NCBI RefSeq assembly: GCF_021732705.1
Contig: NZ_JAKFUM010000002.1
Span: forward strand, 186,001-250,000
Origin: Nevskia sp.
GTDB lineage: Bacteria; Pseudomonadota; Gammaproteobacteria; Nevskiales; Nevskiaceae
Direction: 5' to 3'
DNA length: 64,000 nt
Part shown: one piece after another, positions 5,596 through 41,205 of the stretch
Layout of the letters: each line of letters opens with the position of its first letter
Position numbering within the stretch: the stretch's first letter is position 1
Program-made: the position numbers and the translations under genes
The notes under the pieces: generated by a model
Told to the model about the DNA's origin: nothing
Database searches by the model: none
The model's input: only the letters and a program-made list of their open reading frames with translations

Positions 5596-5707
5596 GCGCC
5601 CTCGGCGTCCCAATTCCCGAATTTCACGCCGGTTTCCCGCTTTCAGGACGCCGGTTCGAGGGCCGCAGGCGACGCTGGGGCACCTTTCCGAACCCGGACA
5701 CCCTGCA

Positions 5708-7189: not shown

Positions 7190-7198
7190 GCCGTCGGG

Positions 7199-25805: not shown

Positions 25806-26729
25806 ATGATGCTGATGATGGCTACTTTTTCCCCGCCCAGACTCAATACCCTGCCCGCCTCGGTGCCGGCGCTGTACGCCCGCTACGGCCGACGGCTGCC
25901 GGAACTGGCGAGCCTCGTGCTGGTCATCGTCATCGCGAAACTGGCGGCGCAGCTGCTGTGGGCGCTGGTGCCGACGCCGGAAGCCGCGCGCTGGCAGCCG
26001 GCCCCGCCGACGCAGCCGAAAGTCACCGCGGCCGCCGGCGTCGACCTGAACCGCATTGCCGGCGCACACCTGTTCGGGCAGTACACGGCACCGTCGGACC
26101 CGGCGCTGAGCGATCTGGCCAACGCGCCGGAAACCCAGCTCAACCTGACCCTGCTTGGCATCCTGTCGAACGGCCGCAACAACAAGGGCTCGCGAGCGCT
26201 GATCTCGACCCAGGGCGGCGAAGAAAAGCCGTACTCGGTCGGCGACGACGTCGGCCGCGGCGTGCAGCTGCAGGCGATCTTTGCCGATCGCGTGATCCTG
26301 TCGCGCGGCGGCAAGCTCGAAACGCTGCGTCTGGACAAGGACAGCACCGGTGGCCTGCCCGGCCTGCCGCCGCAGCAGCTGCAGGAGGAAACCGGCCAGG
26401 CCGACGGCGGCGCTGCCGAATCGCTGGCCGCGATCCGCACGCAGCTGCTGACCGATCCGTCGAAGGTCGCCGACTACATCCGCGTGCAGCCGGTCAACAA
26501 CGGCAGCGGCATCAGCGGCTACCGCATCTACCCGGGCCGCGATCGCTCGGTGTTCGCCGCTGCCGGCCTGCGCCCGGGCGACATCGTGACCTCGGTCAAC
26601 GGCGTGGCGCTGAATGACCCGTCGCGCTCGCTGCAACTGCTGTCCGATCTGAGCCAGAGCCCGCAGATCAACCTGACCGTCGATCGTGGCGGCCAGCCGC
26701 AGAACTTCAGCCTCAACCTCGCCCAATAA
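25806..26729 (+). CDS. gspC: Type II secretion system protein GspC
   Basis: A 307-residue inner-membrane protein. One transmembrane segment (LASLVLVIVIAKLAAQLLWALV, about residues 35-58) is followed by a Pro-rich linker, the HR domain (GVDLNRIAGAHLFGQY; LNLTLLGILSNG) and a C-terminal PDZ domain (FAAAGLRPGDIVTSVNG). GspC links the inner-membrane platform to the secretin GspD and takes part in substrate selection. Several ATGs lie in the first five codons, so the exact start is uncertain. It heads gspC-gspD-gspE-gspF. Confidence 0.95.
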   Translation: MMLMMATFSPPRLNTLPASVPALYARYGRRLPELASLVLVIVIAKLAAQLLWALVPTPEAARWQPAPPTQPKVTAAAGVDLNRIAGAHLFGQYTAPSDPALSDLANAPETQLNLTLLGILSNGRNNKGSRALISTQGGEEKPYSVGDDVGRGVQLQAIFADRVILSRGGKLETLRLDKDSTGGLPGLPPQQLQEETGQADGGAAESLAAIRTQLLTDPSKVADYIRVQPVNNGSGISGYRIYPGRDRSVFAAAGLRPGDIVTSVNGVALNDPSRSLQLLSDLSQSPQINLTVDRGGQPQNFSLNLAQ

Positions 26730-26795
26730 CACCCGCGCCGCACGGACGCGCCGTATCGTCCGGCTGCCGAATCGCCGCTCAGCCCGAAGCCCGCC

Positions 26796-29048
26796 ATGAA
26801 TGCACGCAACACCCTGAAAACGCTAGGCCTCGCGCTGCCATTGGCCGCCGTCGTCGCCCTGTCGGCCGGAAGCTCCTGGGCGCAGGGCCGCAGCCGCGGC
26901 GCGGAAGTGACGCTGAACCTGAAGGACGCCGAAATCTCGACGCTGATCGCGACCGTCAGCGAGGTCACCGGCAAGAACTTCATCATCGATCCGCGCGTGC
27001 GCGGCAAGGTCACCGTGGTCTCGGCGACACCGATGGATGCCGCCGGGGTCTACCAGACGTTCCTGGCCGTGCTGCAGGTGCAGGGTTTCGCGGCGATTCC
27101 GGCAGGGGATGCGATCAAGATCGTGCCGGAAACGAATGCCCGCACCGACGGCGGCGGCCTGATCTCGAACGGGCGCGGCGTGCCGCTCGACGAAATCGTG
27201 ACCCACGTCTACACGGTGCAGAACGTCTCGGCGTCGCAGCTCGTCGCGATCCTGCGGCCGCTGATTTCGCAGAGCGGCCACTTCGCCGCGTATGCCGGCA
27301 ACAACTCGCTGATCATTTCCGATCGCGCCTCGAACGTCGCCCGCATCGAGCGCCTGATCCAGCAGATCGACCAGAGCGGCGACCGCGAAATCGACGTCAT
27401 CAAGCTCGAGAACGCCGCCGCGACCGATGTCGTCCGCATCCTCACCACTCTTTCGCAGGCCAGCAAGCAGGCCGACCCGACCGCGCAGGCCGGCACCACG
27501 ATCGCCGACGAACGCAGCAACAGCGTGCTGATCAGCGGCGAGAAGTCCGAGCGCGCGCGCATGGCCGAGATCGTGCGCAAGCTCGATGCGCCCGGCCCGA
27601 GCGGCGGCGACACCCAGGTCTTCTATCTGAACTACGCCAGCGCCGAAAATCTCGCGCCGATCCTCGAAGGCTATGCCAAGGGTTCGAGCTCGACCTCCCG
27701 TGCCGGCGCCGGCGGCGCGGCCGCCACCATTCCCGGGCAGGCCCCCGGTGCCGCGGCGCCATCCGGTGGCGGCGGCAGCCCCGACGGCACCCGCGTGATC
27801 GCCGACAAGGACACCAACTCGCTGGTCGTCACCGCGACGCCGAAGGCGATGCTGGCGATCCGCAACGTCATCAATCAGCTCGACATTCGCCGCCGTCAGG
27901 TGCTGGTCGAAGCGATCATTGCCGAAGTCAGCGCGACCAAGGCCAGCGAACTCGGCCTCGACTACGCGGCGTACAGCCCGAACACCGGTGCGATCACCGG
28001 CATCCTGAACCAGTCGACGCAGAGCGCGCTGTCGAGCCTCGGCACCGCCGCGGCCGGTGCCGCGACCGGGGGTGCCAGCACCCTGGTGACGGCGGCGGCC
28101 TCGCTGATCGGCCAGGGCGCGACGGCGGCCGGTGGCGGCTTCACCTCCGGCGGCTCGTTCTTCGCCGTGCTGCTGCGGGCACTGGCCTCCGACGGCGACA
28201 CCAACATCCTGTCGACGCCGCAGCTGACCACGCTCGACAACGAGGAAGCGAAGCTCAGCGTCGGCCAGGAAGTGCCGTTCCTGACCGGCAGCTTTTCGAA
28301 CTCCGGTTCCGGCGGCAACAACGGCTCGGTCAACCCATTCCAGACGATCGAACGCAAGGAAGTGGGCCTCAAGCTCGGCATCACGCCGACGATCAACGAA
28401 AACAACGGCCTGAAGCTGAAGATCGACCTCGAAAGCTCGGGCATCGCCAGCGGCGGCGCCGGCACCGCGAGCCTGATCACGAACAAGCGCACGGTCACCA
28501 ATTCGGTGTCGGTGGAAGGCGACCAGATCCTGTTCATCGGTGGCCTGATCGACAACCAGCTGACCGATTCGCAGAGCCGCATCCCGCTGCTGTCGAGCAT
28601 TCCGGGCATCGGCGCGCTGTTCAAGTCGCGTTCGGTGCGCAAGGCCAAGACCAACCTGATGATCTTCATCCATCCGGTGATCCTCGACGACCGCAGCGAC
28701 GCCGATTACTACACGAAGAAGCGCTACGACGGCGTGCGCAATGCCGAAGTCCGCGCCGCGCAGGGTGCGGTGCCGCTGATCGGCGGTGCCCGCCCGGTGC
28801 TGCCGCAGTTCGATGGCTACGACGTGCCGCCGCCGGCAGCGCCGAAGGCCGCCGATGCCGCCCCGGCCGGTCCATCGGCATCGACTGCTCCGGCAGCCGT
28901 CCCGCCGTCTGCCGATGCCGCCCCGGCCGCCGCCGCAGCGCCGGCCCCCGCGACGCCGACGGCGGAAGCGCCGGCGGCCGCGCCGTCTGCCAGCCCGTCC
29001 ACCGCACCCGCACCGGAAGCAGCGCCGGCACCGGCCGCCACGCCGTAA
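26796..29048 (+). CDS. gspD: Type II secretion system secretin GspD
   Basis: A 750-residue outer-membrane secretin with a signal peptide (LALPLAAVVALSAGSSWAQG). The N0 domain starts at VTLNLKDAEISTLIATVSEV; N1-N3 repeats follow (YTVQNVSASQLVAILRPL; IKLENAAATDVVRIL), then the secretin core with VGQEVPFLTG and the C-terminal VEGDQILFIGGLIDNQ, IPLLSSIPGIGALF and NLMIFIHPVIL. The last 90 or so residues are an unusual Ala/Pro-rich tail in the place of a typical S domain. It forms the exit pore for folded exoproteins. It is 66 bases after gspC. Confidence 0.97.
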   Translation: MNARNTLKTLGLALPLAAVVALSAGSSWAQGRSRGAEVTLNLKDAEISTLIATVSEVTGKNFIIDPRVRGKVTVVSATPMDAAGVYQTFLAVLQVQGFAAIPAGDAIKIVPETNARTDGGGLISNGRGVPLDEIVTHVYTVQNVSASQLVAILRPLISQSGHFAAYAGNNSLIISDRASNVARIERLIQQIDQSGDREIDVIKLENAAATDVVRILTTLSQASKQADPTAQAGTTIADERSNSVLISGEKSERARMAEIVRKLDAPGPSGGDTQVFYLNYASAENLAPILEGYAKGSSSTSRAGAGGAAATIPGQAPGAAAPSGGGGSPDGTRVIADKDTNSLVVTATPKAMLAIRNVINQLDIRRRQVLVEAIIAEVSATKASELGLDYAAYSPNTGAITGILNQSTQSALSSLGTAAAGAATGGASTLVTAAASLIGQGATAAGGGFTSGGSFFAVLLRALASDGDTNILSTPQLTTLDNEEAKLSVGQEVPFLTGSFSNSGSGGNNGSVNPFQTIERKEVGLKLGITPTINENNGLKLKIDLESSGIASGGAGTASLITNKRTVTNSVSVEGDQILFIGGLIDNQLTDSQSRIPLLSSIPGIGALFKSRSVRKAKTNLMIFIHPVILDDRSDADYYTKKRYDGVRNAEVRAAQGAVPLIGGARPVLPQFDGYDVPPPAAPKAADAAPAGPSASTAPAAVPPSADAAPAAAAAPAPATPTAEAPAAAPSASPSTAPAPEAAPAPAATP

Positions 29049-29058
29049 GCTGCCCGCC

Positions 29059-30552
29059 ATGGAAGCTGCCAGCACTGCCCTGCGCCGGCCGCCGTTCGCG
29101 TTTGCGAAACGGCATGGCCTGATCGTCGCCGATGACCTCGGCGATGCCGTCGAACTCGTCTGCCGGCCCGGCATCAGCATCGATGCCGTGCAGGAAGCAC
29201 GGCGCTTCGTGCGCCGCCCGGTCAAGCTGAAGAACGTCACGCTCGATGAATTCGATGCGCTGCTGCAGCGCACCTACGAAGGCCAGACCGGCGCGAGTGC
29301 CGCGCTCGCCGACGGCCTGGAGGAAGACAAGGCCGATCTCGACACCCTGAGTCAGGCGCTGGCCGAAGCCCAGGATCTGCTCGAAACCGACGACGACGCG
29401 CCGATCATCAAGTTCATCAACGGCTTGCTGGTCGAAGCAATCAAGGAGAACGCGTCCGACATCCACATCGAGACCTTCGAGACCCGGGTGACGGTGCGCT
29501 TCCGCATCGACGGCGTGCTGCGCGAAATCCTCAATCCGCCGCGCTCGCTGGCGCCGAAGATCGTGTCGCGCGTCAAGATCATGGCCAAGCTCGACATCGC
29601 CGAGAAACGCCTGCCGCAGGATGGTCGCATCAGTCGCGCGTTCGGCGGCCGCAAGGTCGATGTCCGTGTCTCGACCATCCCCACCGGCGGCAATGCCGAG
29701 CGCGTGGTGATGCGTATTCTCGACAAGCAGGCCGAGCGACTGGACCTCGAGCAGCTCGGGCTCGGGCCGGTGCAGACCGCGACGCTGAAGCGGATCATCA
29801 ATCGCCCGTACGGCATCATGCTGGTCACCGGCCCGACCGGCTCCGGCAAGACCACCACGCTGTATTCGGCGCTGTCGACGCTCAATGACCGCAGCCGCAA
29901 CATCATGACGGTCGAGGACCCGATCGAGTACTACATCGACGGTGTCGGCCAGACCCAGGTCAACCTGCGCGTCGAGATGACCTTCGCCAAGGGCCTGCGC
30001 GCGATCCTGCGTCAGGACCCGGACGTGGTGATGGTCGGCGAAATCCGCGACCTCGATACCGCGCAGATCGCCGTGCAGGCATCCCAGACCGGTCACCTCG
30101 TGATGTCGACCCTGCACACCAACACCGCCGTCGGCGCCGTCACCCGCCTGCGCGACATGGGGGTGGAGCCGTACCAGTTGTCGTCGTCGCTGGTCGGGCT
30201 GATGGCGCAGCGCCTCGTCCGCACCTTGTGCAAGCACTGCAAGGCGCCGTACCAGCCGAAGCTGGCCGAACTGGAACAGCTCGGCGTGCCGCAGATGACC
30301 GATCTGGTGCTGTACAAGCCGGTCGGCTGCCCGCAGTGCCGCCACACCGGTTTCGCCGGCCGCAGCGGCATCCACGAGATCATCGAAGTCGATCGCCGGC
30401 TGGAATCGCTGATCCACGACAACGCCTCCGAGCAGATTCTCGAAGCCGCCGCGCGCGAGCGCAGCCCGGGCATCCTGCAGTCGGGCCGCAACAAGGTCAT
30501 CGCCGGCGACACCACGCTGGCCGAAGTGCTGCGCGTGACGATCGAGGAATAA
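29059..30552 (+). CDS. gspE: Type II secretion system ATPase GspE
   Basis: A 497-residue cytoplasmic ATPase. The N-terminal N1E-like region is followed by the core: ASDIHIETFETRVTVRFRID (about residue 133), Walker A TGPTGSGKTTTLYSAL (about residues 257-272), the Asp box, Walker B MVGEIRDLDTAQIA and the His box. The tetracysteine zinc module near the C-terminus is present (CKHC and CPQC). It powers pseudopilus assembly. The ATG at 29059 lies 10 bases after the gspD stop. The same frame stays open further upstream over the Ala/Pro tail of gspD, but this is a GC-rich shadow. Confidence 0.97.
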   Translation: MEAASTALRRPPFAFAKRHGLIVADDLGDAVELVCRPGISIDAVQEARRFVRRPVKLKNVTLDEFDALLQRTYEGQTGASAALADGLEEDKADLDTLSQALAEAQDLLETDDDAPIIKFINGLLVEAIKENASDIHIETFETRVTVRFRIDGVLREILNPPRSLAPKIVSRVKIMAKLDIAEKRLPQDGRISRAFGGRKVDVRVSTIPTGGNAERVVMRILDKQAERLDLEQLGLGPVQTATLKRIINRPYGIMLVTGPTGSGKTTTLYSALSTLNDRSRNIMTVEDPIEYYIDGVGQTQVNLRVEMTFAKGLRAILRQDPDVVMVGEIRDLDTAQIAVQASQTGHLVMSTLHTNTAVGAVTRLRDMGVEPYQLSSSLVGLMAQRLVRTLCKHCKAPYQPKLAELEQLGVPQMTDLVLYKPVGCPQCRHTGFAGRSGIHEIIEVDRRLESLIHDNASEQILEAAARERSPGILQSGRNKVIAGDTTLAEVLRVTIEE

Positions 30553-30559
30553 GCGCGTC

Positions 30560-31786
30560 ATGGCGGCCTACGAATACAGCGCGCTCGACGCTCGCGGCCG
30601 CCAGCTCAAGGGGCTGATCGAAGGCGATACCCAGCGTCAGGTGCGCCAGACGCTGCGCGAACGCGGCCTGACGCCGCTCGACATCAAGGAAGTCGCCGAG
30701 AAGGCACTGCGCAGCACCAGCGGTGGCGGTTTCAGCCTGAACCGCGGCGGCAGCTTCAATTCCACCGAACTGTCGCTGTTCACCCGTCAGCTGGCCACGC
30801 TGACCCGCTCCGGCCTGCCGCTCGATGAAGCGCTGGCCGCGGTCTCGCAGCAGAGCGAATCCAAGCGCGTGCAGCGCGTGACCCTCGGCGTGCGCTCGCG
30901 GGTGACCGAAGGCAACAGCCTGGCCCGCGCGATGAGCGATTTCCCGGGTGCCTTTCCGACCCTGTTCCGCGCCACGATCGAAGCCGGCGAATCGGCCGGC
31001 AAGCTCGATTCGGTGCTCGAGCGCCTCGCCGACTACGCCGACCGTTCGCAGGCGATCAAGAGCAAGGTAATGCTCGCGACGTTCTACCCCGCGACCTTGA
31101 CCCTGGTCGCGATCGGCGTCATCAGCCTGCTGATGTCGTACGTCGTGCCGAAGGTCGTCGGCGTGTTCGACTCGATCGGCGCCGACCTGCCGCCGCTGAC
31201 CAAGGGCCTGATCGCCAGCAGCGAGTTCCTGCAGAACTACGGCCTGATGCTGCTGCTGGCACTGATCGCCGGCATCGTCGTCTTCACCCGCGCGCTGAAG
31301 AACGATGCCTTCCGCCGCAAGTATCACCTGTGGCTGCTCAGCGTTCCGCTGATCGGCCGTCTGGTGCGCGGCGCCAATACCGGCCGCTTCATGCGCACGC
31401 TCGGCATCCTGTTCGGGGCCGGCGTGCCGATTCTCGATGCCATGCGCATCGGCGCGCAGGTGGTCGAGAACCTGCCGATGAAGGAAGCGATCGACGCGGC
31501 GGCCAAGCGCGTTCGCGAAGGCGCGTCCCTGAACAAGTCGCTGGCCGAAAGCCGCCTGTTCCCGCCGATCACGATGCACCTGATCGGCTCCGGCGAAGCC
31601 TCCGGCAAGCTCGACGAGATGCTCGACCGCGCCGCCGAGAACCAGGAAAAGGAACTCGAGACGCTGATCGCCGCGCTGATGAGCCTGTTCGAGCCGGTGC
31701 TGATCCTGACCATGGGCACCGTCGTGCTGCTGATCGTGCTCGCGATCCTGCTGCCGATCTTCAACCTGAACCAGCTGGTCCAGTAG
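30560..31786 (+). CDS. gspF: Type II secretion system inner-membrane protein GspF
   Basis: A 408-residue polytopic protein with two T2SSF domains (about residues 70-195 and 273-395) and three transmembrane stretches: ATLTLVAIGVISLLMSYVV, LMLLLALIAGIVVFT and ILTMGTVVLLIVLAILLPIF. It begins MAAYEYSALDARGRQLKGLI, the family signature. GspF is the platform protein that GspE acts on. It is seven bases after gspE and is the last gsp gene in this block. gspG and the rest are not found anywhere in the window. Confidence 0.97.
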   Translation: MAAYEYSALDARGRQLKGLIEGDTQRQVRQTLRERGLTPLDIKEVAEKALRSTSGGGFSLNRGGSFNSTELSLFTRQLATLTRSGLPLDEALAAVSQQSESKRVQRVTLGVRSRVTEGNSLARAMSDFPGAFPTLFRATIEAGESAGKLDSVLERLADYADRSQAIKSKVMLATFYPATLTLVAIGVISLLMSYVVPKVVGVFDSIGADLPPLTKGLIASSEFLQNYGLMLLLALIAGIVVFTRALKNDAFRRKYHLWLLSVPLIGRLVRGANTGRFMRTLGILFGAGVPILDAMRIGAQVVENLPMKEAIDAAAKRVREGASLNKSLAESRLFPPITMHLIGSGEASGKLDEMLDRAAENQEKELETLIAALMSLFEPVLILTMGTVVLLIVLAILLPIFNLNQLVQ

Positions 31787-32051
31787 CGCCGAGCCATCGC
31801 CGCAGCGCGACCCGGCCCCACCGGCGCGGCGATGGCGACCCTCCCGGCATCCGCGGTCAGACCGCGGGCAGACCGCGAGCAGACCGGGCGCACGGCGTGG
31901 GCACACCGGGAAGTTTTCCCATGGGCCTCCGACCAGGCATTGCCTAGCATCCCCCGACATCGCCCGACACGGGCATGAGCGCTGACCGGCACTCGGCAGC
32001 CTGACGTGACACCAGATCACGACCGCAAGTCACTCGGGGAGCACTATTCGG

Positions 32052-33989
32052 ATGAATTCGCCGCTGGCGGGCTGGCGCTGCCTCGCGCGCACGGGCGGGT
32101 TGAGCCTGTGCCTGCTGCTGGCCGGCTGTCCGGACGATGACGGCCGGGCCGCGACGCCGCCGCCGGCACCGCAGGCATTCGGCGGCGTCATCGCCCTTGC
32201 CGGGGAGATTCCGACCACGAGCGTCACCATCGGCGGCAACGGCGTGTCGCCGCGCTCGACCCGTGCCGATGCCGATCGTCGCTACCGCGTGTCGGCGTCC
32301 GGCCTGACCGCTCCGGTGGTCATCCGCCACGAACTCGGGCCGACCTACGCCGTCGCCGCGACCGTCGGTGCGGTCGGCAATGTCAGCACGCTGACCCAGC
32401 TTCAGGCGCTCGAAGCGCTGCGCGATGAACCGGAAACCGTGCTGCAGAACGCGCTCGACCCGGTCAGCCGCGGCGTCGCCGTCGACTACTCGCCGCTGAC
32501 GCCCGCCGGGCTCGATCGTGCCCGCCGCCGCGTCGCCAGCCTCGTTGCCGAACGCTTCAACTACACCTTGCCCGCAGCCATCGCCAACGCCGACTTCGTC
32601 TCGACGCCGTTTGCCGCGGTCGCCGGCGATCCCACGTTCGATGCCTTGGTGGCGCTCGACACTGCGATCGCCGCGTCCGGCACCGACCTCGCAAGCTTCA
32701 CCCGCAGCCGCGCGCGCGAACTGGAACCGTGCCGCCGCTTCTTCCTCGACCTGAGCCTGCCGCAGGGCCTCAACGAGTTCTGCGCCAACACCCGCGAAAC
32801 CATCGCCACCGGCGGCGGACGACGCGAGTACCGGCAGGTGGCCCGCGACGGCGCCACGCTCGTCATCGCCGCGGACGGCACCGGCATTCTGGACGCGGCG
32901 CTGTCGCTGGCCGACGGCCGCAGCTTCACCTGCAGCGGCAGCGGACCCGGCGCCGGCACCTGCGCCGGGCTGACCGCGATGCCGGAACAGGCCGATGGCA
33001 GCCGCACGCTGGTGTTCGCGGCGCTGGCCCTGATCGATGCCGGCACCGGCGACCGCGCCGTGCTCGATGGCCGCTTCGTCACTGCGATTCCCGGCCTGCC
33101 GCCACTGGATTGCGATGGCGCCGCCCGCAGTCCGCAACCGCTCTATCGCGTCGATGACGACGGCAGCATCAGCGGCGTCTGCATCGGCCTGCAGCCCAGC
33201 GATGCCGGCGAACGGACGCTGTACGGCACCGTCTTCGGCAGCGAACCGGAACTGGAACTGCTGGCCGATGACAGCACCTTGCACGGGCTGACGATTTATC
33301 AGCGCGGGGCCCTTGGCGCGCCGGTGGCGCAGTACCGCTGCGTGGCACCGGCCTGCACCGGCTACCGCGTCACGCCGTTCTTCCCGCTGCCCGGCTTCCC
33401 GCGGGTGCGCGAGTTGGTGCTCGACAACACGCCGGTGACGCGCGTCGGCCTCGGGCCCGGCAGCACGAGCCAGCGCCTGCGCGGACGCTTCGTCGTGCTG
33501 TTCGGCAGTGCCCGGGGGCGACCCGATTGCAGCCGCTCGCCCGAAACCGAGCGGGTCCGGGCCCGGGTCAGCACCGAATCCGCCGATTGGGATGTCTGCC
33601 CGCCGTACGATCTGGTCGAGAACCAGCGCGTCACCGTGCGCCGTGTGCTGCCGGCCGATTTCGGCGGCCGCTATCTCGGCGGCACCGTCTACGAATTCCG
33701 CAATGCGCTGAACAGCAGCGGCCAGATGCTGGTGGTGACCACGCTCGGGCTGGTCCGCCGGGTCGAATACGGCCGCAGCGAAGCCGAACGTTTCGTCTGC
33801 GAAGACCTGCAATGCCGGGGCGCGCGGTTCGGCGCGGCCGATGCCAGCAGCGCCCATCCGATCACCTTCGCCGGAACCACGCTGGTCGACCAGCGGCTCG
33901 ATGGCTCGGCGACCGATCGCAGCGTGACGCTCAACGGCGCGCTGCGCTCGGCACCGGATTGCCTGCTGAACGAGGCCGGCTGCCCGTGA
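32052..33989 (+). CDS. Lipoprotein with repeated Cys modules, unknown function
   Basis: A 645-residue protein. The signal peptide ends in the lipobox LLAGC (Cys26), so it should be lipidated. About residues 40-225 form a carboxypeptidase-like beta start and helical region. From residue 244 to the end there are three diverged modules of about 100-120 residues, each with a Cys pair followed by Gly or a nearby Gly: C294/C304, C430/C435 and C583/C588. The first contains GGRREYR (about 255-261). The same module occurs twice in the protein at 37938-38858. The stop overlaps the GTG of the TonB receptor (GTGA), so both are probably made together. I do not recognise the family; a surface-exposed or periplasmic partner of the receptor is the obvious guess. 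Confidence 0.8.
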   Translation: MNSPLAGWRCLARTGGLSLCLLLAGCPDDDGRAATPPPAPQAFGGVIALAGEIPTTSVTIGGNGVSPRSTRADADRRYRVSASGLTAPVVIRHELGPTYAVAATVGAVGNVSTLTQLQALEALRDEPETVLQNALDPVSRGVAVDYSPLTPAGLDRARRRVASLVAERFNYTLPAAIANADFVSTPFAAVAGDPTFDALVALDTAIAASGTDLASFTRSRARELEPCRRFFLDLSLPQGLNEFCANTRETIATGGGRREYRQVARDGATLVIAADGTGILDAALSLADGRSFTCSGSGPGAGTCAGLTAMPEQADGSRTLVFAALALIDAGTGDRAVLDGRFVTAIPGLPPLDCDGAARSPQPLYRVDDDGSISGVCIGLQPSDAGERTLYGTVFGSEPELELLADDSTLHGLTIYQRGALGAPVAQYRCVAPACTGYRVTPFFPLPGFPRVRELVLDNTPVTRVGLGPGSTSQRLRGRFVVLFGSARGRPDCSRSPETERVRARVSTESADWDVCPPYDLVENQRVTVRRVLPADFGGRYLGGTVYEFRNALNSSGQMLVVTTLGLVRRVEYGRSEAERFVCEDLQCRGARFGAADASSAHPITFAGTTLVDQRLDGSATDRSVTLNGALRSAPDCLLNEAGCP

Positions 33990-36900
33990 GCCGTCCGGTC
34001 TGGCTGGCCGGGGCGCTGCTGTGGCTGACCGCGCCGGCCGCCCTCGCGGCCGACAGCCGCGCCAAGTCGCCGCCGCAAACGCCGCAGGTGGTGCCGCTGT
34101 CGGGACCGGACGAAGGCGATGCGCCGACCCGGTCGCCCAGCGGCAGCGCCGATGTCGCGCCGCCGGCGACGATTCCGGCGCAGCCGGACGCCGTGGTCGC
34201 GGTGCCGGCGGTGAAGCTCGGCACCGTGGCCGTGAAGGGTCAGCGTCGGCCGGTGCAGGTCGGCCCGCTGCCGGGGCTGAACCTGACCCGCGACCAGATT
34301 CCGGCCGCGCTGCAGAGCGCCACCGCCGCGGACATCGCCGAATCGCGCGCGCTGAGCCTGACCGATTTCCTCAACACGCAGCTGCAGTCGGTCAACGTCA
34401 ATGATTTTCAGGGCAACCCGTTCCAGCTCGATCTGAGCTTCCGCGGCTTCACCGCCGGGCCGCAGGTCGGCACGCCGCAGGGCCTGTCGGTGTTCTTCGA
34501 CGGCACCCGCGTCAACGAGCCGTTCGGCGATGTCGTGAACTGGGATCTGATTCCGCTGAACGCGATCGACCGGCTCGATCTGTTTCCCGGCTCCAACCCG
34601 GTGTTCGGCCTGAACACGCTCGGCGGCGCGATCGCGCTGCGCAGCAAGAGCGGCTTCACCGCACCCGGCGTCAGCGCCGACGCCAGCGGCGGCTCGTTCG
34701 GACGGCGGCAGGCGAAGGCGGCCGTCGGCGCCAGCCACGGCCCGCTGGCCGGCTTCGCGGCGCTGACCTACTTCGCCGAGGACGGCTGGCGGCGCAACTC
34801 GCCCAGCGAGGTGCAGCAGGGCTTCGCCCGTGCCGACTACGAGCTGGGCTTCGGCCAGATCACCGCGAGCGCGCTGCTGGCCGACAACGATCTGGTCGGC
34901 AACGGGCTGGTGCCGATCGAGGATTACGAAGCCGACCGCCGTGCGGTCTACACCTCGCCCGATCGCACCCGAAACCGGCTTCACCAGTTCAACCTGTCCG
35001 GGCTGTTCGAACTGACGCCGACCTTCAACCTGACCACGCAGGGCTATCGCCGCGACAGTCGCCGTCGCGGCGTCAACGGCGATGTCTACGAGGCGTTCGA
35101 CGACATCGGTCCGAGCAGTCCGCTGGGCAACCGCTTCATCCGCAATGGCGACCAGCCGATCTGCCAGTACGCCGACACCGATGGCGACGGCCGGCCCGAC
35201 ACGCTGTCCGACGGCACCACGCAGGCGCCGCCGCTGAACGATCCGTTCCGCACCGGCCAGTGCGAGAACGTGCAGTACGCCGGCACCCCGCGCAATGGCG
35301 CCTACGTGACCCGCGATGGCCAGTTCGGCGTCGGCCCGGGTGTGCCCGACGGCTCGCCCGTGGGCCTGCTGACGCGGACCCGCATCGGTCAGGTCACCTA
35401 CGGCGGCGCGGTGCAGGCGAACTGGAATCTCGACCGGCATCGCCTGCTGATCGGTGCGTCGGTCGACAGCGGCCGCGCCGGCTATTCGGCCGAGCAGCAG
35501 CTCGGCCTGATCGACGCCCAGCGGCGCGTGTTCACCGATCCGTCGCAGGTCGATGAACTGTTCCGCGCCGCGCAGATTCCGCTGACGATCAATCGCTTCA
35601 ACGGCACGTCGCGCACGCTCAGTGCCTATTTCAGCGAGACCTGGACCGCGCGCGACAACCTGTTCGTGACCGTGGCCGGCCGCTACAACTGGACCCGCGT
35701 GCACAACGAGGTCGATGCCCGCATCGGCATCGACCTGCACGAAGTGGTCAATCGCCTGCCGACCTTCATCCTGTGCCCGGAGAACGACGTCGCCTCGTGC
35801 CCGTCGACGCTCGGGCCGGTGGTGATCAACGACCTGTCGCGGGAGACGCTGGCGCCGACCGAGGAGCGCTTCACTTTCTCGTCGCTGAATCCGTCATTCG
35901 GCTTCAACTGGCTGCCGTGGAAGGACCTGAACCTGTTCGGCAACGTCTCGCGCGGCGCGCGGGCGCCATCGGTGATCGAGCTCGGCTGCGCCTTCGACGC
36001 CACGCCGGTGGTGATCGTGCCGGCGTTCGTCGATCCGGCCACCGGCGTCAACGTGCCGGCGCAGACCGCGCCGCGCAGTCTCGTCGGCCCGACCTGCAGC
36101 CTGCCGACCTCGCTGTCCGGCGATCCGTTCCTGCCGCAGATCCGCTCGCTGTCCGGCGAAGTCGGCGCCCGGGGCCGGGTGTTCGGCGGCGTGCAGTGGA
36201 ACCTGAGCATCTATCAGACGGACATCCGCAACGACATCTACTTCGTCGGCGCCTCGCCGTCGCGCAGCTACTTCGACACCATCGACAAGACCCGTCGGCG
36301 CGGACTCGAACTGGGTTTCAAGGGCCGCTGGCGCTGGTTCGACTACAAGTTCGGCTACGCCTACACGGCGGCGACGTTCGAGTCGGAGTTCTTCGTGCTG
36401 AGCCCGCACAACGCGAGCGCCGACTTCAACCGCACCAATGCCGGCAGCGGCAGCGGGCCGACCGCCACCTCGAACAACGGCCTCGGCACCTTCCGCACGA
36501 TCCGGGTCGAGCCGGGCGCGATCCTGCCGGCCAGCCCGCTGCACAACCTGAACCTGAATCTCGATTTCGCGCTGACCGAACGGCTGAAACTGGGCCTGAC
36601 CACGGTGTTCCATTCGAAGTCCTTCGTGCGCGGCAACGAGAACAACGCGCACAGCCCGACCGGCACCGATCAGGTCACCGACGGCTTCGGGCCGGTGACC
36701 GATTTCGGCAGCTTCAATGGCGGCCGTCCGTTCACCACGCAGGGCTCGCTGCCGGAGTACGCGGTGGTCAATCTCGATCTGACCTGGCAAGTGCTGCCGA
36801 CGCTGTCGATCTACGCGCAGGTGACCAACGTCCTCGATCAGGACTACGCCAGCGCCGGCCGCCTGGGCATCAACCCGTTCGTGGCCGGACCGAACGGCGC

Positions 36901-37024
36901 GCGCGGCGACAACGGCTTCAACTACAACTCGATCGAGCACCGCAACACGACCTTTGTCGGTCCCGGTGCGCCGCGCGGCTTCTTCGCCGGCCTGAACTAC
37001 GACTTCCGGTTTGCCCCGCCGTGA
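33986..37024 (+). CDS. TonB-dependent outer-membrane receptor
   Basis: A 1012-residue receptor. A signal peptide (WLAGALLWLTAPAALA) starts at the GTG at 33986, followed by a Pro-rich spacer and a TonB-box-like stretch (VKLGTVAVKG, about residue 75). The plug domain (about 95-220) has LQSVNVNDFQGNPFQLDLSF, DGTRVNEPFGD and LNTLGGAIALRSKSG. The 22-strand barrel follows, ending in YDFRFAPP, with Phe near the end. Some loops are long and contain Cys pairs (CQYADTDGDGRPDTLSD; CPENDVASCPS), one of them with a calcium-binding-like DTDGDGRPD sequence. The substrate is unknown; no Fe-S, heme or vitamin genes lie nearby. It overlaps the upstream lipoprotein by four bases. Confidence 0.92.
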   Translation: MSRPVWLAGALLWLTAPAALAADSRAKSPPQTPQVVPLSGPDEGDAPTRSPSGSADVAPPATIPAQPDAVVAVPAVKLGTVAVKGQRRPVQVGPLPGLNLTRDQIPAALQSATAADIAESRALSLTDFLNTQLQSVNVNDFQGNPFQLDLSFRGFTAGPQVGTPQGLSVFFDGTRVNEPFGDVVNWDLIPLNAIDRLDLFPGSNPVFGLNTLGGAIALRSKSGFTAPGVSADASGGSFGRRQAKAAVGASHGPLAGFAALTYFAEDGWRRNSPSEVQQGFARADYELGFGQITASALLADNDLVGNGLVPIEDYEADRRAVYTSPDRTRNRLHQFNLSGLFELTPTFNLTTQGYRRDSRRRGVNGDVYEAFDDIGPSSPLGNRFIRNGDQPICQYADTDGDGRPDTLSDGTTQAPPLNDPFRTGQCENVQYAGTPRNGAYVTRDGQFGVGPGVPDGSPVGLLTRTRIGQVTYGGAVQANWNLDRHRLLIGASVDSGRAGYSAEQQLGLIDAQRRVFTDPSQVDELFRAAQIPLTINRFNGTSRTLSAYFSETWTARDNLFVTVAGRYNWTRVHNEVDARIGIDLHEVVNRLPTFILCPENDVASCPSTLGPVVINDLSRETLAPTEERFTFSSLNPSFGFNWLPWKDLNLFGNVSRGARAPSVIELGCAFDATPVVIVPAFVDPATGVNVPAQTAPRSLVGPTCSLPTSLSGDPFLPQIRSLSGEVGARGRVFGGVQWNLSIYQTDIRNDIYFVGASPSRSYFDTIDKTRRRGLELGFKGRWRWFDYKFGYAYTAATFESEFFVLSPHNASADFNRTNAGSGSGPTATSNNGLGTFRTIRVEPGAILPASPLHNLNLNLDFALTERLKLGLTTVFHSKSFVRGNENNAHSPTGTDQVTDGFGPVTDFGSFNGGRPFTTQGSLPEYAVVNLDLTWQVLPTLSIYAQVTNVLDQDYASAGRLGINPFVAGPNGARGDNGFNYNSIEHRNTTFVGPGAPRGFFAGLNYDFRFAPP

Positions 37025-37108
37025 TCGGCTCGATCGTCCGGCTTCACCCACCGTCGTCCGGAATCTCCGGTCGGCGGTCATTTCCCTAGGTACGACAGGA
37101 GTCTCCCC

Positions 37109-37897
37109 ATGCGTCATGCCCCGCTGTATTCCGCCGTTGCCGCCGCCGCGCTGTCGCTGGCGGCAGCCCCCAGCCACGCCGTCGGCTTCGAGACGGTGAC
37201 CAGCACCGGTACGCCGGTGCTGACCCTGTGCGCCGGCACCGAGTCCAACCCGAATCCGACCAACAACGTCTGCCGCGTGTTCGGCAACCTGCCACAGGGT
37301 CGCTTCGCCGGCACCCTCGCCGGCCGTCAGGGCCTGTGGCGCCTCGTGCGTTCGAACCTCGGCCAGAACATCGTGGCCAATGGCACGGTCATCGGCCGGC
37401 TCGACGATCAGGTCTGGCAGCGCAACAACACCAACGAATACGTGTTCGGCATGCGCGTGACCCTGGTCAACGCGCAGTGGACGCCGCCGGCTTCCGTGTG
37501 CGGCAGCGCGACCGAGCCGGACTACTTCGAGATCAACGACATGTTCCGCAGCGGCTTCGGCGCGGTGCAGAACCTGTCGGTTGCCTATCGTCAGGGCAAT
37601 GCCGAGGAAGGTGCCTGGCTCGCCGGTCGCACGGCGCAGGGCCTGAACCAGTACGCCGGCTCGCCGGATGGCCTGAATCCGCTGCGCAACAACAGCTTGG
37701 TCGACTTCCGGACCGACGTGAACTTCGAGGATCCGGATGGCACTTCGGTGTTCAACTCGTCGTTCATGCTGGTCACTGCGACCTTGCCGAACGGCGTGAC
37801 CACGAACCCGGTGGCGAATGCCGTGCGCCTGTATCAGGGCGGCGAGGAAGGCCAGTGCCAGTTCTCGGTGAATCTGTCCGGCTTCCAGCCGAACTGA
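37109..37897 (+). CDS. Exported protein of unknown function
   Basis: A 262-residue protein with a good ribosome site (AGGAG) and a signal peptide (SAVAAAALSLAAAPSHA, cleavage near residue 24). The mature part is mostly beta by pattern and rich in Asn, Gly and aromatic residues (YVFGMRVTLVNAQW; FRTDVNFEDPDGTSVFN). It has four Cys (about residues 41, 55, 132 and 251), which could form two disulfides. Not recognised. It lies 84 bases after the TonB receptor gene and 40 before the second Cys-module gene. An extracellular binding protein or receptor partner is possible, but this rests on position only. Confidence 0.75.
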   Translation: MRHAPLYSAVAAAALSLAAAPSHAVGFETVTSTGTPVLTLCAGTESNPNPTNNVCRVFGNLPQGRFAGTLAGRQGLWRLVRSNLGQNIVANGTVIGRLDDQVWQRNNTNEYVFGMRVTLVNAQWTPPASVCGSATEPDYFEINDMFRSGFGAVQNLSVAYRQGNAEEGAWLAGRTAQGLNQYAGSPDGLNPLRNNSLVDFRTDVNFEDPDGTSVFNSSFMLVTATLPNGVTTNPVANAVRLYQGGEEGQCQFSVNLSGFQPN

Positions 37898-37937
37898 GCC
37901 TGCGGCAGCGCGCAGCCCGGCCCGCTGGTCTCCGGTC

Positions 37938-38858
37938 ATGACCGGGCGAGCGGCGCTGGTCTGCGCGCTGCTGCTGGTGGCGCTGCTGGCCGGCGTGCTG
38001 TGGTGGCCGGCCGAATCGCTATCGCCGCCGGCGGCCGGTTCGATCGCAGCACCGCCAACGGATTCTGGCGCGCCGGTCCCGGTGGCGACCGGTGGCAGCG
38101 CCACGGCGGCTCCGCTCGCGACACTGGCGGCCGCCGGAGACTGTGTCGAACCGTCTGCCGGCGTGAACCTGACGATCGGTGCGAACGTGCTCGGTCTCTG
38201 CGTCGGTCCGGCGCAATCCACGCAGAACGGCGGCCGGCGCGAACATCGGTATGTCGCGGCCGACGGCGGTTCGCTGACGATCAGCGCCGAAGCCGGCGCT
38301 GTCGCCAGCATCGTCATCGCTGCCGGCAACACGGCGACGGCCATCGACGCCGCCTGCGACGGCGCAGGCTGCAACGGCGCCACGCTCGGCCCGGCCGATG
38401 CCGATGGCCGGCAGGACCTGAGCCTGCGTGGCGTGCAGCTGACCGCCGCCGACGGCCGCGTCGTGCTGCTCGAAGCCCGCCTGCGAACCGGCCCCGGGCT
38501 GGCCTGCGCCGATGTCGGCATCAGCCTGCTGTACAGCGATCAGCGCAGCGCCTACTTCTGCCCGCTCGGCGGTGGCGGCACGATCTGGCCGGACGACGAT
38601 CACGCCGTGCACACCGTGCGCTCGTTCGACGGCGAGACGATCAGCATCGACACGGATGCCGCGAATCGCGTGATGGCCGTCCGCTATGGCACGTTCGCCT
38701 GTCGCCGTGCCGCTTGCCGCGGCGCGACCTACGACGGCGCCCGCACGTTGCAGTTCGCCGGCACGCGGCTCGATGGCCCGGATCGCGGTGGCGGTGCCGA
38801 ACTCAGCGTGCAGCTCGATGGCCGCATCGTGCTGCCGGCAAGCAGCGTGATCGAATGA
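37938..38858 (+). CDS. Membrane-anchored or exported protein with two Cys modules, unknown function
   Basis: A 306-residue protein with an N-terminal hydrophobic segment (ALVCALLLVALLAGVLWW), probably a signal anchor because no clear cleavage site follows, then a Pro/Ala linker to about residue 65. Two modules related to those of the lipoprotein at 32052-33989 follow. Module 1 (about 88-190) has GGRREHR, C140 and C145 then G; module 2 (about 208-305) has C255 and C260 then G, with LQFAGTRLDG after it. It closes the lipoprotein-receptor-secreted protein group. The function is unknown. Confidence 0.75.
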   Translation: MTGRAALVCALLLVALLAGVLWWPAESLSPPAAGSIAAPPTDSGAPVPVATGGSATAAPLATLAAAGDCVEPSAGVNLTIGANVLGLCVGPAQSTQNGGRREHRYVAADGGSLTISAEAGAVASIVIAAGNTATAIDAACDGAGCNGATLGPADADGRQDLSLRGVQLTAADGRVVLLEARLRTGPGLACADVGISLLYSDQRSAYFCPLGGGGTIWPDDDHAVHTVRSFDGETISIDTDAANRVMAVRYGTFACRRAACRGATYDGARTLQFAGTRLDGPDRGGGAELSVQLDGRIVLPASSVIE

Positions 38859-38885: not shown

Positions 38886-40151
38886 TCAGCGCACGCTGGC
38901 CGAGGACGGTGTCGGTGCCGATGCCGGTTCGAGCGCTGCGCTGACCACCTGCAGCTCCGCGTTCGGCGTCAGCCGCAGGTACAGGCACCACAGTGCGAAG
39001 CCCGCTCCGGTCATCGCGGCGGCGGCCAGCGCCAGCCCGATCGGCGAGGCATGGACCAGCGGTGCCACCACGCCGGACACGACCGCCGACACGGCGAGGC
39101 TGATCGTCGCCTGCACCGAGGCCGCGGCTCCACGCACCGCCGGGAAGCGGTCGAGCATCAGCAGGGTCAGCGTCGGGAACGCCAGGGTCACGCCAATGCC
39201 GATCACGCCGATCGGCAGCACGAACCACGGCACCATCGGAGCCAGCAGGGCACTGCCGGCCAGATTCAGCGCCGTGCCGAGACCCATCAGCGAAAACCCG
39301 ATGGTGACGGTGCGCACCGGTGTCAGCTTGCCGGCCATGCGCGCGGACGTGGCCGAGCCCAGCATCATGCCGGCGATCACCGGCACGAACAGCCATGCGA
39401 ACTGCCGTTCGTTCAGGTGCAACAGGTTCAGCACCACCGACGGTGCCGCGGCGATGTAGGTGAACAGCGCGCTGAAGTTCAGCGCCGCACCGAAGCCGAG
39501 CAGCATGAAGCGGCCATCGCGCGCCACGCAGCGATAGGTGCGGCCGAGCGGTCCCCAGGCGAGACGCGTGCGCCGTTCGCGCGGATGCGTTTCCGGCAAT
39601 GCGGCGAGCGCGGCCAGCACCAGCAGCACGGTGAAGCCGGCCAGCAGCCAGAAGATCGCGCGCCAGCCGGCCGCGCCAAGCACGAAGCCGCCGACGATCG
39701 GCGCGATCGCCGGCGCGAAGCCGAAGATGAAGCTGACCTGCGACATCAGGCGCTGGGCATCGGCGCCGTCGTAGCGATCGCGAATGATCGCGCGGCCGAC
39801 GATCATGCCGGCGCCGGCGCAGACGCCCTGCATCGCGCGGTAGACCAGCAGCAGCTCGTACGACGGCGACAGCGCGCAGCCGACCGTCGCCAGCGCGAAC
39901 AGGATCAGCGACCACAGCACCACACCGCGCCGGCCGTAGGCATCGGACAGCGGTCCGTGCAACAGCGACATCGCCGCGAACGCGATCAGATAGACGCTGA
40001 GCGATTGCTGCATGACTTCCGGGCTGACGCCGAAATCGGCTTCCATCGCCCGGAACGCCGGGAAGAAGGCATCGATCGTGAACGGCCCGAGCATGGCCAT
40101 GCCGGCGAGGATCGGCGCCAGCAATCGCGGGTTGGCGCGGAAGCGGTTCAT
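38886..40151 (-). CDS. Bcr/CflA-family multidrug efflux MFS transporter
   Basis: A 421-residue MFS transporter with 12 predicted transmembrane helices. Family marks are LGPFTIDAFFPAFRAMEADF at the N-terminus, GPLSDAYGRRGVVLWSL (loop 2-3 motif A), and YRAMQGVCAGAGMIVGRAIIRD (motif C region). Members export drugs such as bicyclomycin or chloramphenicol, or small peptides and sulfonamides. The ATG at 40151 (MNRFRANPRLL) gives the usual length. It is 13 bases after plsX, in the spot where fabH or other fab genes often follow plsX. Confidence 0.92.
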   Translation of the reverse strand: MNRFRANPRLLAPILAGMAMLGPFTIDAFFPAFRAMEADFGVSPEVMQQSLSVYLIAFAAMSLLHGPLSDAYGRRGVVLWSLILFALATVGCALSPSYELLLVYRAMQGVCAGAGMIVGRAIIRDRYDGADAQRLMSQVSFIFGFAPAIAPIVGGFVLGAAGWRAIFWLLAGFTVLLVLAALAALPETHPRERRTRLAWGPLGRTYRCVARDGRFMLLGFGAALNFSALFTYIAAAPSVVLNLLHLNERQFAWLFVPVIAGMMLGSATSARMAGKLTPVRTVTIGFSLMGLGTALNLAGSALLAPMVPWFVLPIGVIGIGVTLAFPTLTLLMLDRFPAVRGAAASVQATISLAVSAVVSGVVAPLVHASPIGLALAAAAMTGAGFALWCLYLRLTPNAELQVVSAALEPASAPTPSSASVR

Positions 40152-40164
40152 CGGCAACGCGGCC

Positions 40165-41205
40165 CTAGCGGGCGGCGGACTGCGGCACGGTGACCAGCGT
40201 ATCGGCCAGAAGCCGGGAAATGCGCGCCGGCACGTCGTGCTCGACTGCCCGCATCGCCACCGTGATGGCATTGGCGAACGCCAGCGCATCGGCACCACCA
40301 TGACTCTTGATCACGGTGCCGTTCAGGCCGACCAGGCTGGCCCCGTTGTACAGGCGCGGATCGAGCCGCTGCTGGATCCGGCGCAGCACCAGATACGCCG
40401 CCGCGCCCATCAGCTTGGTGGCGGCGTTGCGCTCGAATTCCTCGCGCAGGAAGCGCCCGATCATTTTCGCGACGCCTTCCATGGTCTTCAGCGCGATGTT
40501 GCCGACGAAGCCGTCGCAGACGACGACATCGACCGGATTCAGGTAAACGTCATTGCCTTCGATGAAGCCGCCGTAGTTCAGCTTCGGCGACGCCGAGATC
40601 AGCGCGGCCGCCTGCTTGACCGTCTCGTTGCCCTTGATCTCTTCCTCGCCCATGTTCAGCAATGCCAGCCGCGGCCGCTCGATGCCGTGCAGGGCCGTGA
40701 CCATCGCCGAACCCATCACCGCGAATTCGAACAACTGCTCCGGCGTGCACGCGGCGTTGGCACCGAGATCGAGCACGTGGGTGCTGCCTTCGACCGTCGG
40801 GAACGGCGAAATGATCGCCGGGCGGTCGATGCCGGGCAGCGTCTTCAGCACGAACTTGGCGATCGCCATCAGCGCGCCGGTGTTGCCGGCGGACACGGCG
40901 GCCTGGGCGCGACCGGCTTTCACCAGATTGATCGCGACCCGCATCGACGAATCCTTCTTGTTGCGAAGCGCCTTCGACGGCGCTTCATCCATCGCCACGA
41001 CTTCCGAAGCCGGCTCGATCGAGACCCGGGGGTCCTGACCGTATCCGTGAGAAATCAGTGACTTGCGCAGCTCGGCTTCGTTGCCGACCAGAATCAGGTT
41101 GAGCTGCGCATGCTGGTCCAGCGCGCGCACGGCCGCTTCGACCACGATCGGATGACCGTGGTCGCCGCTCATGGCGTCGAGAGCCAGCAGGACAGGCGCG
41201 GTCAT
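40165..41205 (-). CDS. plsX: Phosphate acyltransferase PlsX
   Basis: A 346-residue enzyme that makes acyl-phosphate from acyl-ACP for phospholipid synthesis. It starts LLALDAMSGDHGHPIVVEAA, with the typical N-terminal DAMGGD-like motif (here DAMSGDHG), and has AAVSAGNTGALMAIAKFVL (about residues 98-116) and DGFVGNIALKTMEGVAKM near the C-terminus. It forms the yceD-rpmF-plsX unit on the minus strand. No fab gene follows. Confidence 0.97.
   Translation of the reverse strand: MTAPVLLALDAMSGDHGHPIVVEAAVRALDQHAQLNLILVGNEAELRKSLISHGYGQDPRVSIEPASEVVAMDEAPSKALRNKKDSSMRVAINLVKAGRAQAAVSAGNTGALMAIAKFVLKTLPGIDRPAIISPFPTVEGSTHVLDLGANAACTPEQLFEFAVMGSAMVTALHGIERPRLALLNMGEEEIKGNETVKQAAALISASPKLNYGGFIEGNDVYLNPVDVVVCDGFVGNIALKTMEGVAKMIGRFLREEFERNAATKLMGAAAYLVLRRIQQRLDPRLYNGASLVGLNGTVIKSHGGADALAFANAITVAMRAVEHDVPARISRLLADTLVTVPQSAAR

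What the first reader, a model, noticed from the sequence alone, without database searches (positions are those of the whole stretch)
32052..38858. A ~100-residue Cys module repeated five times in two proteins on either side of a TonB receptor
Three modules occur in the lipoprotein at 32052-33989 and two in the protein at 37938-38858. Four have C-x4-C-x-G (C430/C435, C583/C588; C140/C145, C255/C260); the fifth has a longer Cys spacing (C294/C304). Each is followed within 10-20 residues by a hydrophobic strand such as ITFAGTTL, LQFAGTRL or LVFAALAL. Two modules also share GGRRE(Y/H)R. I know no named domain with this layout. Repeats shared by a lipoprotein and an anchored protein in one locus suggest co-evolution.
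Basis: seen in the sequence. Interest (0 to 1): 0.8.

Follow-up and report, generated by a model that had tools for sequence, protein, structure and literature searches.

The report
New disulfide module beside TonB receptor
Two neighbouring cell-envelope proteins of a Nevskia-like bacterium share five copies of a protein building block that matched no catalogued domain we searched, and they probably serve as helper parts of a nutrient-uptake gate, although what it carries is still unknown.

Summary
Lipoprotein P1 (32052-33989) and anchored protein P2 (37938-38858) carry five homologous modules: all 10 module pairs beat 40 column shuffles each in profile-profile alignment. Each module has four Cys, not two (C1-x16-22-C2-x46-66-C3-x4-C4), in roughly 120-155 residues; besides the lipid Cys, these are the only Cys conserved in all complete exported parts. 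The 'long' C294/C304 spacing is an insertion in this genome alone.

Nothing in Pfam, NCBIfam or PDB sequences matches above noise. A single-module model is confident (pLDDT 89.6, pTM 0.82): an all-beta meander without a significant PDB match.

The 3+2 set occurs in 7 of 18 genomes of the genus; elsewhere only weak fragments matched. It belongs to a cassette, P1 - TonB receptor - exported protein MID - P2, between gspF and an MFS-type gene that are neighbours in some relatives. Receptor and MID relatives also occur together in another family, without the modules. Best reading: disulfide-stabilised binding or docking domains serving one TonB receptor; substrate unknown. In five relatives a giant secreted protein with a degenerate nuclease domain heads the cassette.

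The parts
32052..33989 (+). P1: 645-aa predicted outer-membrane lipoprotein (lipobox LAGC, Cys26, +2 Pro; sorting rule recalled), N-terminal domain about residues 27-226, then three modules
   Evidence: Translation; orthologs in 6 other genomes; lipobox seen in 7 of 7, six and the seventh (G013, on a separate contig)
32724..33113 (+). P1 module I (C227, C244, C294, C304; 5-residue insertion between C3 and C4)
33108..33530 (+). P1 module II (C354, C377, C430, C435)
33525..33986 (+). P1 module III (C493, C516, C583, C588) plus tail C637/C644, a tail pair otherwise seen only in G016
33986..37024 (+). TonB-dependent receptor; inferred GTG start overlaps the P1 stop (GTGA)
   Evidence: Pfam PF00593 6.1e-35 and PF07715 8e-12 for the ORF 33527-37024; junction read
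37109..37897 (+). MID: 262-aa protein with a signal peptide by eye, unknown family, four conserved Cys (41, 55, 131, 250); one or two copies per cassette
37938..38858 (+). P2: 306-aa protein, N-terminal signal anchor by eye (helix 5-18 in the model, low confidence there), linker of low confidence, then two modules
38136..38507 (+). P2 module A (C69, C88, C140, C145)
38499..38855 (+). P2 module B (C190, C208, C255, C260); modelled alone at pLDDT 89.6, pTM 0.82
31907..31918 (+). CGGGAAGTTTTC, conserved short motif upstream of the cassette, possible operator or promoter element
   Evidence: 1 exact hit in 404 kb of the same contig; exact in 6 of 7 cassette loci, 1 mismatch in the seventh
25806..31786 (+). 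Upstream neighbours gspC, gspD, gspE, gspF (type II secretion)
   Evidence: Pfam T2SSC, Secretin, T2SSE, T2SSF
38886..40301 (-). Downstream neighbour, MFS-type transporter (name from its sequence, not from a family search); with gspF it marks the insertion site

Best explanation
P1 and P2 are accessory envelope proteins of one TonB-dependent uptake cassette. Their common part is a new small beta domain, probably held by two disulfides (C1-C2 closing a hairpin, C3-C4 closing a one-turn helix), that arose by old duplications before the seven genomes diverged and now stands 3+2. It shows no invariant charged or His residue, so it most likely binds rather than catalyses: the same ligand is taken up by P1 at the outer membrane and by P2 on the periplasmic side, with the receptor (and its older partner MID) between them, or P1 and P2 dock to each other across the periplasm at the receptor. 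Shown: homology, Cys pattern, gene set, restriction to one genus in the samples searched, purifying selection, insertion site. Inferred: disulfides, topology, binding role, hand-over. The substrate is unknown.
For: Module homology. Exactly 12 module Cys in mature P1 (6 of 6 complete orthologs; plus two tail Cys in the window and G016) and exactly 8 in exported P2 (7 of 7), apart from the lipid Cys. C2, C3 and C4 align in 30 of 30 module rows; C1 aligns in 26, and in the four others a Cys lies one residue on. Single-module model pLDDT 89.6, pTM 0.82, with a three-residue helix between C3 and C4. Five copies in each of 7 genomes, E <= 2.4e-20 (30 of these 35 copies built the profile, so they match by construction); next best 0.009. 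In the order, orthologs of P1, P2, MID (E<=1e-4) and the receptor (E<=1e-100) were found in the same 7 genomes, besides one partial P1 hit in G070. P1 stop overlaps the receptor start. dN/dS among the closest genomes: P1 0.15-0.51, P2 0.19-0.48 (five genomes), receptor 0.06-0.20, MID 0.10-0.23 (four genomes), PlsX control 0.10-0.35: selected proteins, P1/P2 changing faster than receptor and MID. In G153 and G282, from another family, MID relatives lie beside receptor genes 48-49% identical to this one in the plug part and 29% in the barrel part.
Against: No binding, localisation or disulfide data. P1 could face either side of the outer membrane. P1/P2 contact is a guess from shared domains; the modules may simply be a convenient stable fold. 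Pair P1_II/P1_III is weak (probability 35%). No significant fold relative, so no function can be borrowed. The cassette was not found in 11 of 18 genus members (completeness 84-98%). Between the window or G016 and the other genomes dN/dS of P1 and P2 is 0.64-0.96 with dS 0.7-1.2, near saturation, so constraint over that distance is uncertain.
Confidence: 0.5

Rival explanations
1. The cassette is a surface nucleic-acid capture or uptake system: a GlyGly-CTERM protein with a degenerate nuclease domain binds DNA or RNA at the surface, and P1, P2, MID and the receptor bring fragments in.
For: In 5 of 7 loci the gene before P1 encodes a protein of about 1950-1960 aa with LTD, nuclease-like and ExeM/NucH similarity. 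Exo_endo_phos passes its cut-off in G009 and G010 but not in G005 (3 of 5 copies scanned). Its stop overlaps the P1 start in the two loci whose junction I compared (G009, G005). TIGR03501 GlyGly-CTERM reaches its cut-off in 2 of 5 copies. GlyGly-CTERM proteins are processed by rhombosortase, and VesB is secreted by type II secretion (titles and abstract openings of PMC6219818, PMC13393428, PMC12369372; not opened).
Against: The gene is absent from the locus in the window and in G016. All 5 copies have replaced the Asn, the Glu and the S and H of the final SDH that the paralog in the window's own genome keeps (GD(F/L)N and another DH are kept), so it is probably not a nuclease. ExeM/NucH scores 65.5-82.8 bits against a cut-off of 300. 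In Shewanella, ExeM seems to stay with the cytoplasmic membrane (PMC6085458, passages), so display at the surface is not assured. No Pho, Fur or Zur site within 3 mismatches.
Confidence: 0.15
2. A TbpB/HpuA-type bipartite receptor: P1 is a surface lipoprotein that captures a metal- or haem-bearing protein for the TonB receptor.
For: Lipoprotein gene overlapping a receptor gene; P1 changes faster than the receptor; all-beta modules. Slam-dependent partners such as LbpB and HpuA contain eight-stranded barrels (PMC7857515, passages).
Against: No Pfam match to any TbpB/HpuA domain. P2 carries the same domain but looks inner-membrane anchored, for which I recall no counterpart in those systems. No Fur-like site within 3 mismatches. 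Slam was not searched for.
Confidence: 0.15
3. P1 and P2 are assembly or quality-control factors for the neighbouring type II secretion system or for export of MID or the giant protein, not uptake proteins.
For: The cassette lies directly after gspC-D-E-F; P2 has a GspC-like layout (one N-terminal anchor, then periplasmic domains; recalled comparison); lipoproteins can be type II substrates (PulA, PMC7857515 passages).
Against: gspF was found in 18 of 18 genus genomes, the cassette in 7, so it is not needed for secretion itself. The receptor is the most conserved part of the cassette.
Confidence: 0.12

Closest known systems
Slam-dependent lipoprotein plus TonB receptor pairs (TbpB-TbpA, LbpB-LbpA, HpuA-HpuB)
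   Same: Lipoprotein with beta domains encoded next to a TonB receptor
   Different: No Pfam match; smaller Cys-rich modules in tandem; same module in a second, anchored protein; extra exported partner MID; Slam not tested
ZepA (PEP-CTERM zinc exoprotein, PMC10957091; abstract and passages seen)
   Same: One MID relative outside the genus has a VPLPA-CTERM tail above cut-off and lies beside a TonB receptor gene; zepA neighbourhoods also hold TonB transporters
   Different: No His beyond the putative signal peptide in 9 of 9 MID copies (cleavage placed by eye), so the H-X2-9-H-F/Y-H zinc motif is absent; the window MID has no CTERM hit
Lipocalin-like and designed beta barrels, LolB, SP_0198
   Same: Several of the first Foldseek hits are small meander barrels; the P2 model also hit a designed barrel, 6d0t, at probability 0.99, TM-score 0.42 by target
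   Different: None significant: best E 0.12 for the module and 0.021 for 6d0t
ExeM/NucH extracellular nucleases
   Same: LTD, nuclease-like domain and GlyGly-type tail in the giant protein that heads five of the seven cassettes
   Different: Far below the family cut-off and with key site residues replaced; not in the window locus

Membership tests
TonB-dependent receptor (PF00593 + PF07715) | Barrel and plug domains above Pfam cut-offs | tested here: met
   122.4 bits vs 27 and 46.1 vs 23.9 for the ORF 33527-37024
Bipartite TbpB/HpuA-type system | Lipoprotein bears a TbpB/HpuA/LbpB domain | tested here: not met
   No Pfam family for P1 or P2 at E<=1
Bipartite TbpB/HpuA-type system | Lipoprotein gene adjacent to a TonB receptor gene | tested here: met
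   GTGA overlap in the window; neighbours in orthologous loci
Bipartite TbpB/HpuA-type system | Slam translocon in the genome | not tested
ZepA zinc exoprotein | H-X2-9-H-F/Y-H motif | tested here: not met
   His positions of 9 MID copies; motif from PMC10957091 passages
ZepA zinc exoprotein | C-terminal PEP-CTERM | tested here: not met
   Window MID has no NCBIfam hit; of four distant relatives one passes VPLPA-CTERM (27.9 vs 25.35 bits) and one falls below it (22.0)
Lipocalin/calycin fold | Significant structural match | tested here: inconclusive
   609 hits with E<=10, none <=0.001; second aligner unavailable
ExeM/NucH nuclease (giant protein of 5 relatives) | NF033681 cut-off 300 bits | tested here: not met
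   65.5-82.8 bits in 5 copies
ExeM/NucH nuclease (giant protein of 5 relatives) | Catalytic Asn, Glu, His of the EEP fold (assignment recalled; compared with the own-genome paralog) | tested here: not met
   Asn, Glu and the S and H of the final SDH replaced in 5 of 5 copies, kept in the paralog G000:C16
GlyGly-CTERM (TIGR03501), giant protein of relatives only | Score of 15.5 bits or more | tested here: inconclusive
   15.5 and 15.6 bits in G005 and G002; not reported at E<=0.1 for G009, G010, G013

The most novel reading that the evidence does not exclude
A new disulfide domain family, with a meander topology not represented in the PDB, arose inside one bacterial genus and was installed on both envelope membranes around a pre-existing TonB receptor-MID pair, forming a trans-envelope relay that, together with a catalytically dead nuclease displayed on the surface, captures and imports nucleic acid or another polymer.
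Probability: 0.08. Interest if true: 0.85.

Novelty: new variant of a known kind. Interest (0 to 1): 0.52.

Why it matters
A domain with a confident predicted fold, a strict four-Cys signature and a fixed 3+2 copy number, yet found only in one genus in the samples searched, is a good case for how new protein domains appear. It is tied to a defined gene cassette, so its function is testable: sharing one domain between an outer-membrane lipoprotein and an apparently inner-membrane-anchored protein beside a TonB receptor predicts a ligand relay or a direct bridge, an arrangement I do not recall from described TonB systems.

Tried and rejected
Pfam, NCBIfam and PDB-sequence searches of P1, P2, MID and module profiles: noise only (best module hit in Pfam E 0.016 in 3 of 30 members, in PDB 0.31). 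Foldseek of P2 (PDB, viral) and of module B (PDB): no hit with E<=0.001. Recent duplication of modules at DNA level: best local score of P1 against P2 is 61.5, above the maximum of 54 in 200 codon shuffles, but as a long gapped alignment out of module register, so I do not read it as a recent copy. Diversifying selection on P1/P2: not supported, dN/dS <1 in every pair computed, up to 0.96 for distant, near-saturated pairs. ZepA identity of MID: rejected. Pho, Fur and Zur sites upstream of six cassettes: best matches had 4 or more mismatches. A FastTree run of the modules printed nothing. Rows dropped: P2-search hits in G010:C37, G005:C23 and G098 (Arg-rich or unrelated frames when read); weak module-profile hits in G385, G390, G017, G032, G064, G082 (E 0.004-0.09); MID-profile hit in G254 (E 0.009, two stops); partial P1 hit in G070 (9e-6, N-terminal domain only). 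Alignment A1 left out 5 of the 35 module copies. Literature: 'Nevskia' + 'TonB-dependent' (4 papers), 'PEP-CTERM' + 'TonB-dependent' (13 papers, 12 listed), TonB + extracellular nuclease terms (14 papers, 12 listed): no title or abstract opening shown described this cassette. Opened: PMC10957091 (outline with abstract, passages), PMC7857515 (passages), PMC6085458 (passages). Two of my notebook lines are superseded by this report: the G014 gap is 18, not 19, bases, and gspF and the MFS gene are on one contig in 5, not all 7, cassette genomes.
Full report
OBSERVATION. With orthologs from six other genomes I cut five module profiles of seven rows each and compared them pairwise. The 10 pairs score 29.3-74.3; the largest of 40 column-shuffled scores for any pair is 22.1. 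Eight pairs have hhalign probability >=94%, P1_I/P1_III 81%, P1_II/P1_III 35%. Of 15 comparisons with other parts of P1 and MID, 14 give <=15.8 and one gives 27.5 over eight identical columns, where my slice overlapped module I; 25 comparisons with reversed profiles give at most 25.9. The repeats are real; the P1_II/P1_III pair alone would be marginal.

ANATOMY. The unit is larger than reported and has four Cys: in the window C1-x16-22-C2-x46-66-C3-x4-C4 (x9 in module I). Positions are 227/244/294/304, 354/377/430/435, 493/516/583/588 in P1 and 69/88/140/145, 190/208/255/260 in P2. Outside signal or anchor segments, P1 orthologs have exactly these 12 plus the lipid Cys (six complete proteins; the window and G016 add two tail Cys) and P2 orthologs exactly these 8 (7 of 7). 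C2, C3 and C4 are invariant in the 30 rows aligned; C1 aligns in 26 and is shifted by one residue in the other four. The alignment A1 used 30 of the 35 known copies: I left out the two P2 modules of G009 and the three P1 modules of G013. The long C294-C304 spacing is an insertion in the window only. GGRRE, shared by P1 and P2 here, is not kept in P1 orthologs. Apart from Cys no residue is invariant; an Asp before the last strands is in 20 of 30 rows, and no charged or His residue is invariant.

STRUCTURE. P2 with 7 rows gave pLDDT 71.4, pTM 0.47; the two modules show a similar order of strands with a short helix at C-x4-C. Module B alone with the 30-row alignment gave pLDDT 89.6, pTM 0.82: eleven strands and a three-residue helix between C3 and C4. 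C1 lies just before the first strand and C2 right after the second, so a bond between them is plausible, but no coordinates are given out and distances were not measured. Foldseek against PDB gave no hit with E<=0.001 for either model. The first hits of the module include small meander barrels (designed barrels, SP_0198, LolB) at E>=0.12 and TM about 0.3; the P2 model hit a designed barrel at probability 0.99, E 0.021, TM 0.42 by target. BFVD gave nothing significant for the P2 model.

DISTRIBUTION. In the order (85 genomes) the profile finds 35 copies: five in each of seven genomes of the window's genus (18 searched), E <=2.4e-20, 30 of them by construction; the next hit is 0.009 and broken by a stop. 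In 369 genomes of the class two others match at 0.004-0.005 in fragments; in 398 of the phylum only the own genome matches at E<=0.01. Only 10-11 candidates per genome were scored in the last two, so distant copies could be missed. In the order, orthologs of MID (E<=1e-4) and of the receptor (E<=1e-100) were in the same seven genomes. In 100 relatives at E<=0.001, P1 and P2 were found in these seven plus one further genome each: G070 for P1 (9e-6, N-terminal domain only) and G098 for P2 (4e-4, a low-complexity frame).

CASSETTE. Order: P1 - TonB receptor - MID - P2, all on +. The inferred receptor start GTG (33986) overlaps the P1 stop. Upstream are gspC, D, E, F; downstream on - an MFS-type gene and plsX (both named from sequence, recalled). 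gspF and the MFS-type gene were found in 18 of 18 genus genomes. Among the seven cassette genomes they lie on one contig with the cassette between them in five; in G009 and G013 contig breaks intervene. Among the 11 others, four have 18-148 bases between the two matches (G014 18, G004 34, G011 97, G008 148), five have 2.1-3.1 kb (in G015 an AsmA-like gene; the other four not examined), and in two they are on different contigs. So the cassette sits in a site that is empty in relatives. MID is present twice in G002, G005, G013 and probably G009, where one copy is cut by contig ends. dN/dS among the closest genomes is 0.15-0.51 for P1, 0.19-0.48 for P2, 0.06-0.20 for the receptor, 0.10-0.23 for MID and 0.10-0.35 for plsX as control; for the window or G016 against the others P1 and P2 reach 0.64-0.96 at near-saturated dS.

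OLDER PARTNERSHIP. In the class sample (369 genomes) MID's profile matches three genomes besides the own: G153 (1.5e-7) and G282 (6.5e-5), one genus of another family, with two copies each, and G254 (0.009, two stops, dropped). In each of G153 and G282 one copy lies beside the plug end of a receptor gene (48-49% identical to the window's over about 300 residues) and the other beside a barrel end (29%), each receptor piece running off a contig end, so this may be one receptor flanked by two MID relatives. One relative carries a VPLPA-CTERM above cut-off, one below. No P1 or P2 match was found in those four pieces at E<=1e-4, nor module hits in the class search. So receptor plus MID looks like the older unit, and the modular P1/P2 like additions of this genus.

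THE GIANT GENE OF RELATIVES. In G002, G005, G009, G010 and G013, not in the window or G016, P1 is preceded by a gene of about 1950-1960 aa: signal peptide by eye, LTD, nuclease-like domain, PKD, many repeats, then a Ser/Gly-rich tail, hydrophobic stretch and Arg cluster (GlyGly-CTERM at cut-off in two of five). Against the paralog of the window's own genome (G000:C16), all five have replaced the Asn, the Glu and the S and H of the final SDH of the nuclease site, while other site motifs remain (site assignment recalled, comparison computed). dN/dS of 0.13-0.23 (three genomes) suggests a working non-enzyme.

FOOTPRINT. CGGGAA[GC]TTTTC lies upstream of the first cassette gene in six of seven loci and with one mismatch in the seventh (G010), occurs once in 404 kb of the window's contig, and is absent from the two cassette-free loci fetched. 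Its resemblance to an ECF sigma -35 element is recalled, not tested.

MECHANISM AND VERDICT. I take P1 and P2 as accessory, ligand-binding or docking proteins of a TonB-dependent uptake cassette (0.5). Homology, Cys pattern, gene order, site and selection are shown; disulfides, sides of the membrane, ligand and hand-over are inferred. The nearest functional analogues are lipoprotein-TonB receptor pairs such as HpuAB and TbpBA, but membership is not met by domain content and Slam was not tested. The domain itself is undescribed in the libraries searched. I rate it a new variant of a known kind with moderate interest; the bolder relay reading remains open.

Noticed in passing
L030:4695-10574, L028:13831-19719, L027:13902-19763, L033:724-6582, L029:221-6064: Giant secreted LTD/ExeM-like protein heads the cassette in five relatives; nuclease-site Asn, Glu and the S and H of the final SDH are replaced in all five copies while the own-genome paralog (L056) keeps them: a likely conserved pseudo-nuclease.
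   Followed up: partly
window 31907-31918; also L026, L027, L028, L030, L033, and L057 with one mismatch: CGGGAASTTTTC conserved upstream of the cassette in otherwise divergent intergenic DNA, once in 404 kb of the contig; possible ECF-type promoter or operator.
   Followed up: partly
L050, L051, L052, L053: Distant MID relatives, one with a VPLPA-CTERM sorting tail above cut-off, beside pieces of receptors of the same kind in another gammaproteobacterial family: a receptor-exoprotein pair I found no description of.
   Followed up: partly
L054:3744-6392 (G014): Empty site: gspF directly followed by the MFS-type gene, 18 bases between the two matches.
   Followed up: yes
window 32052-33989, C637/C644: An extra C-x6-C tail pair exists only in the window P1 and (as C-x5-C) in G016.
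   Followed up: no
L055:3605-5602 and L030:2384-4396: AsmA-like gene after gspF in some genus members, weakly similar to a GspN model (22 bits, cut-off 50).
   Followed up: no
L051:7773-8810: A putative PEP-CTERM-like protein and a large TPR-like protein (4837-7776) lie downstream of a MID relative, suggesting an exosortase-type region (from sequence only).
   Followed up: no
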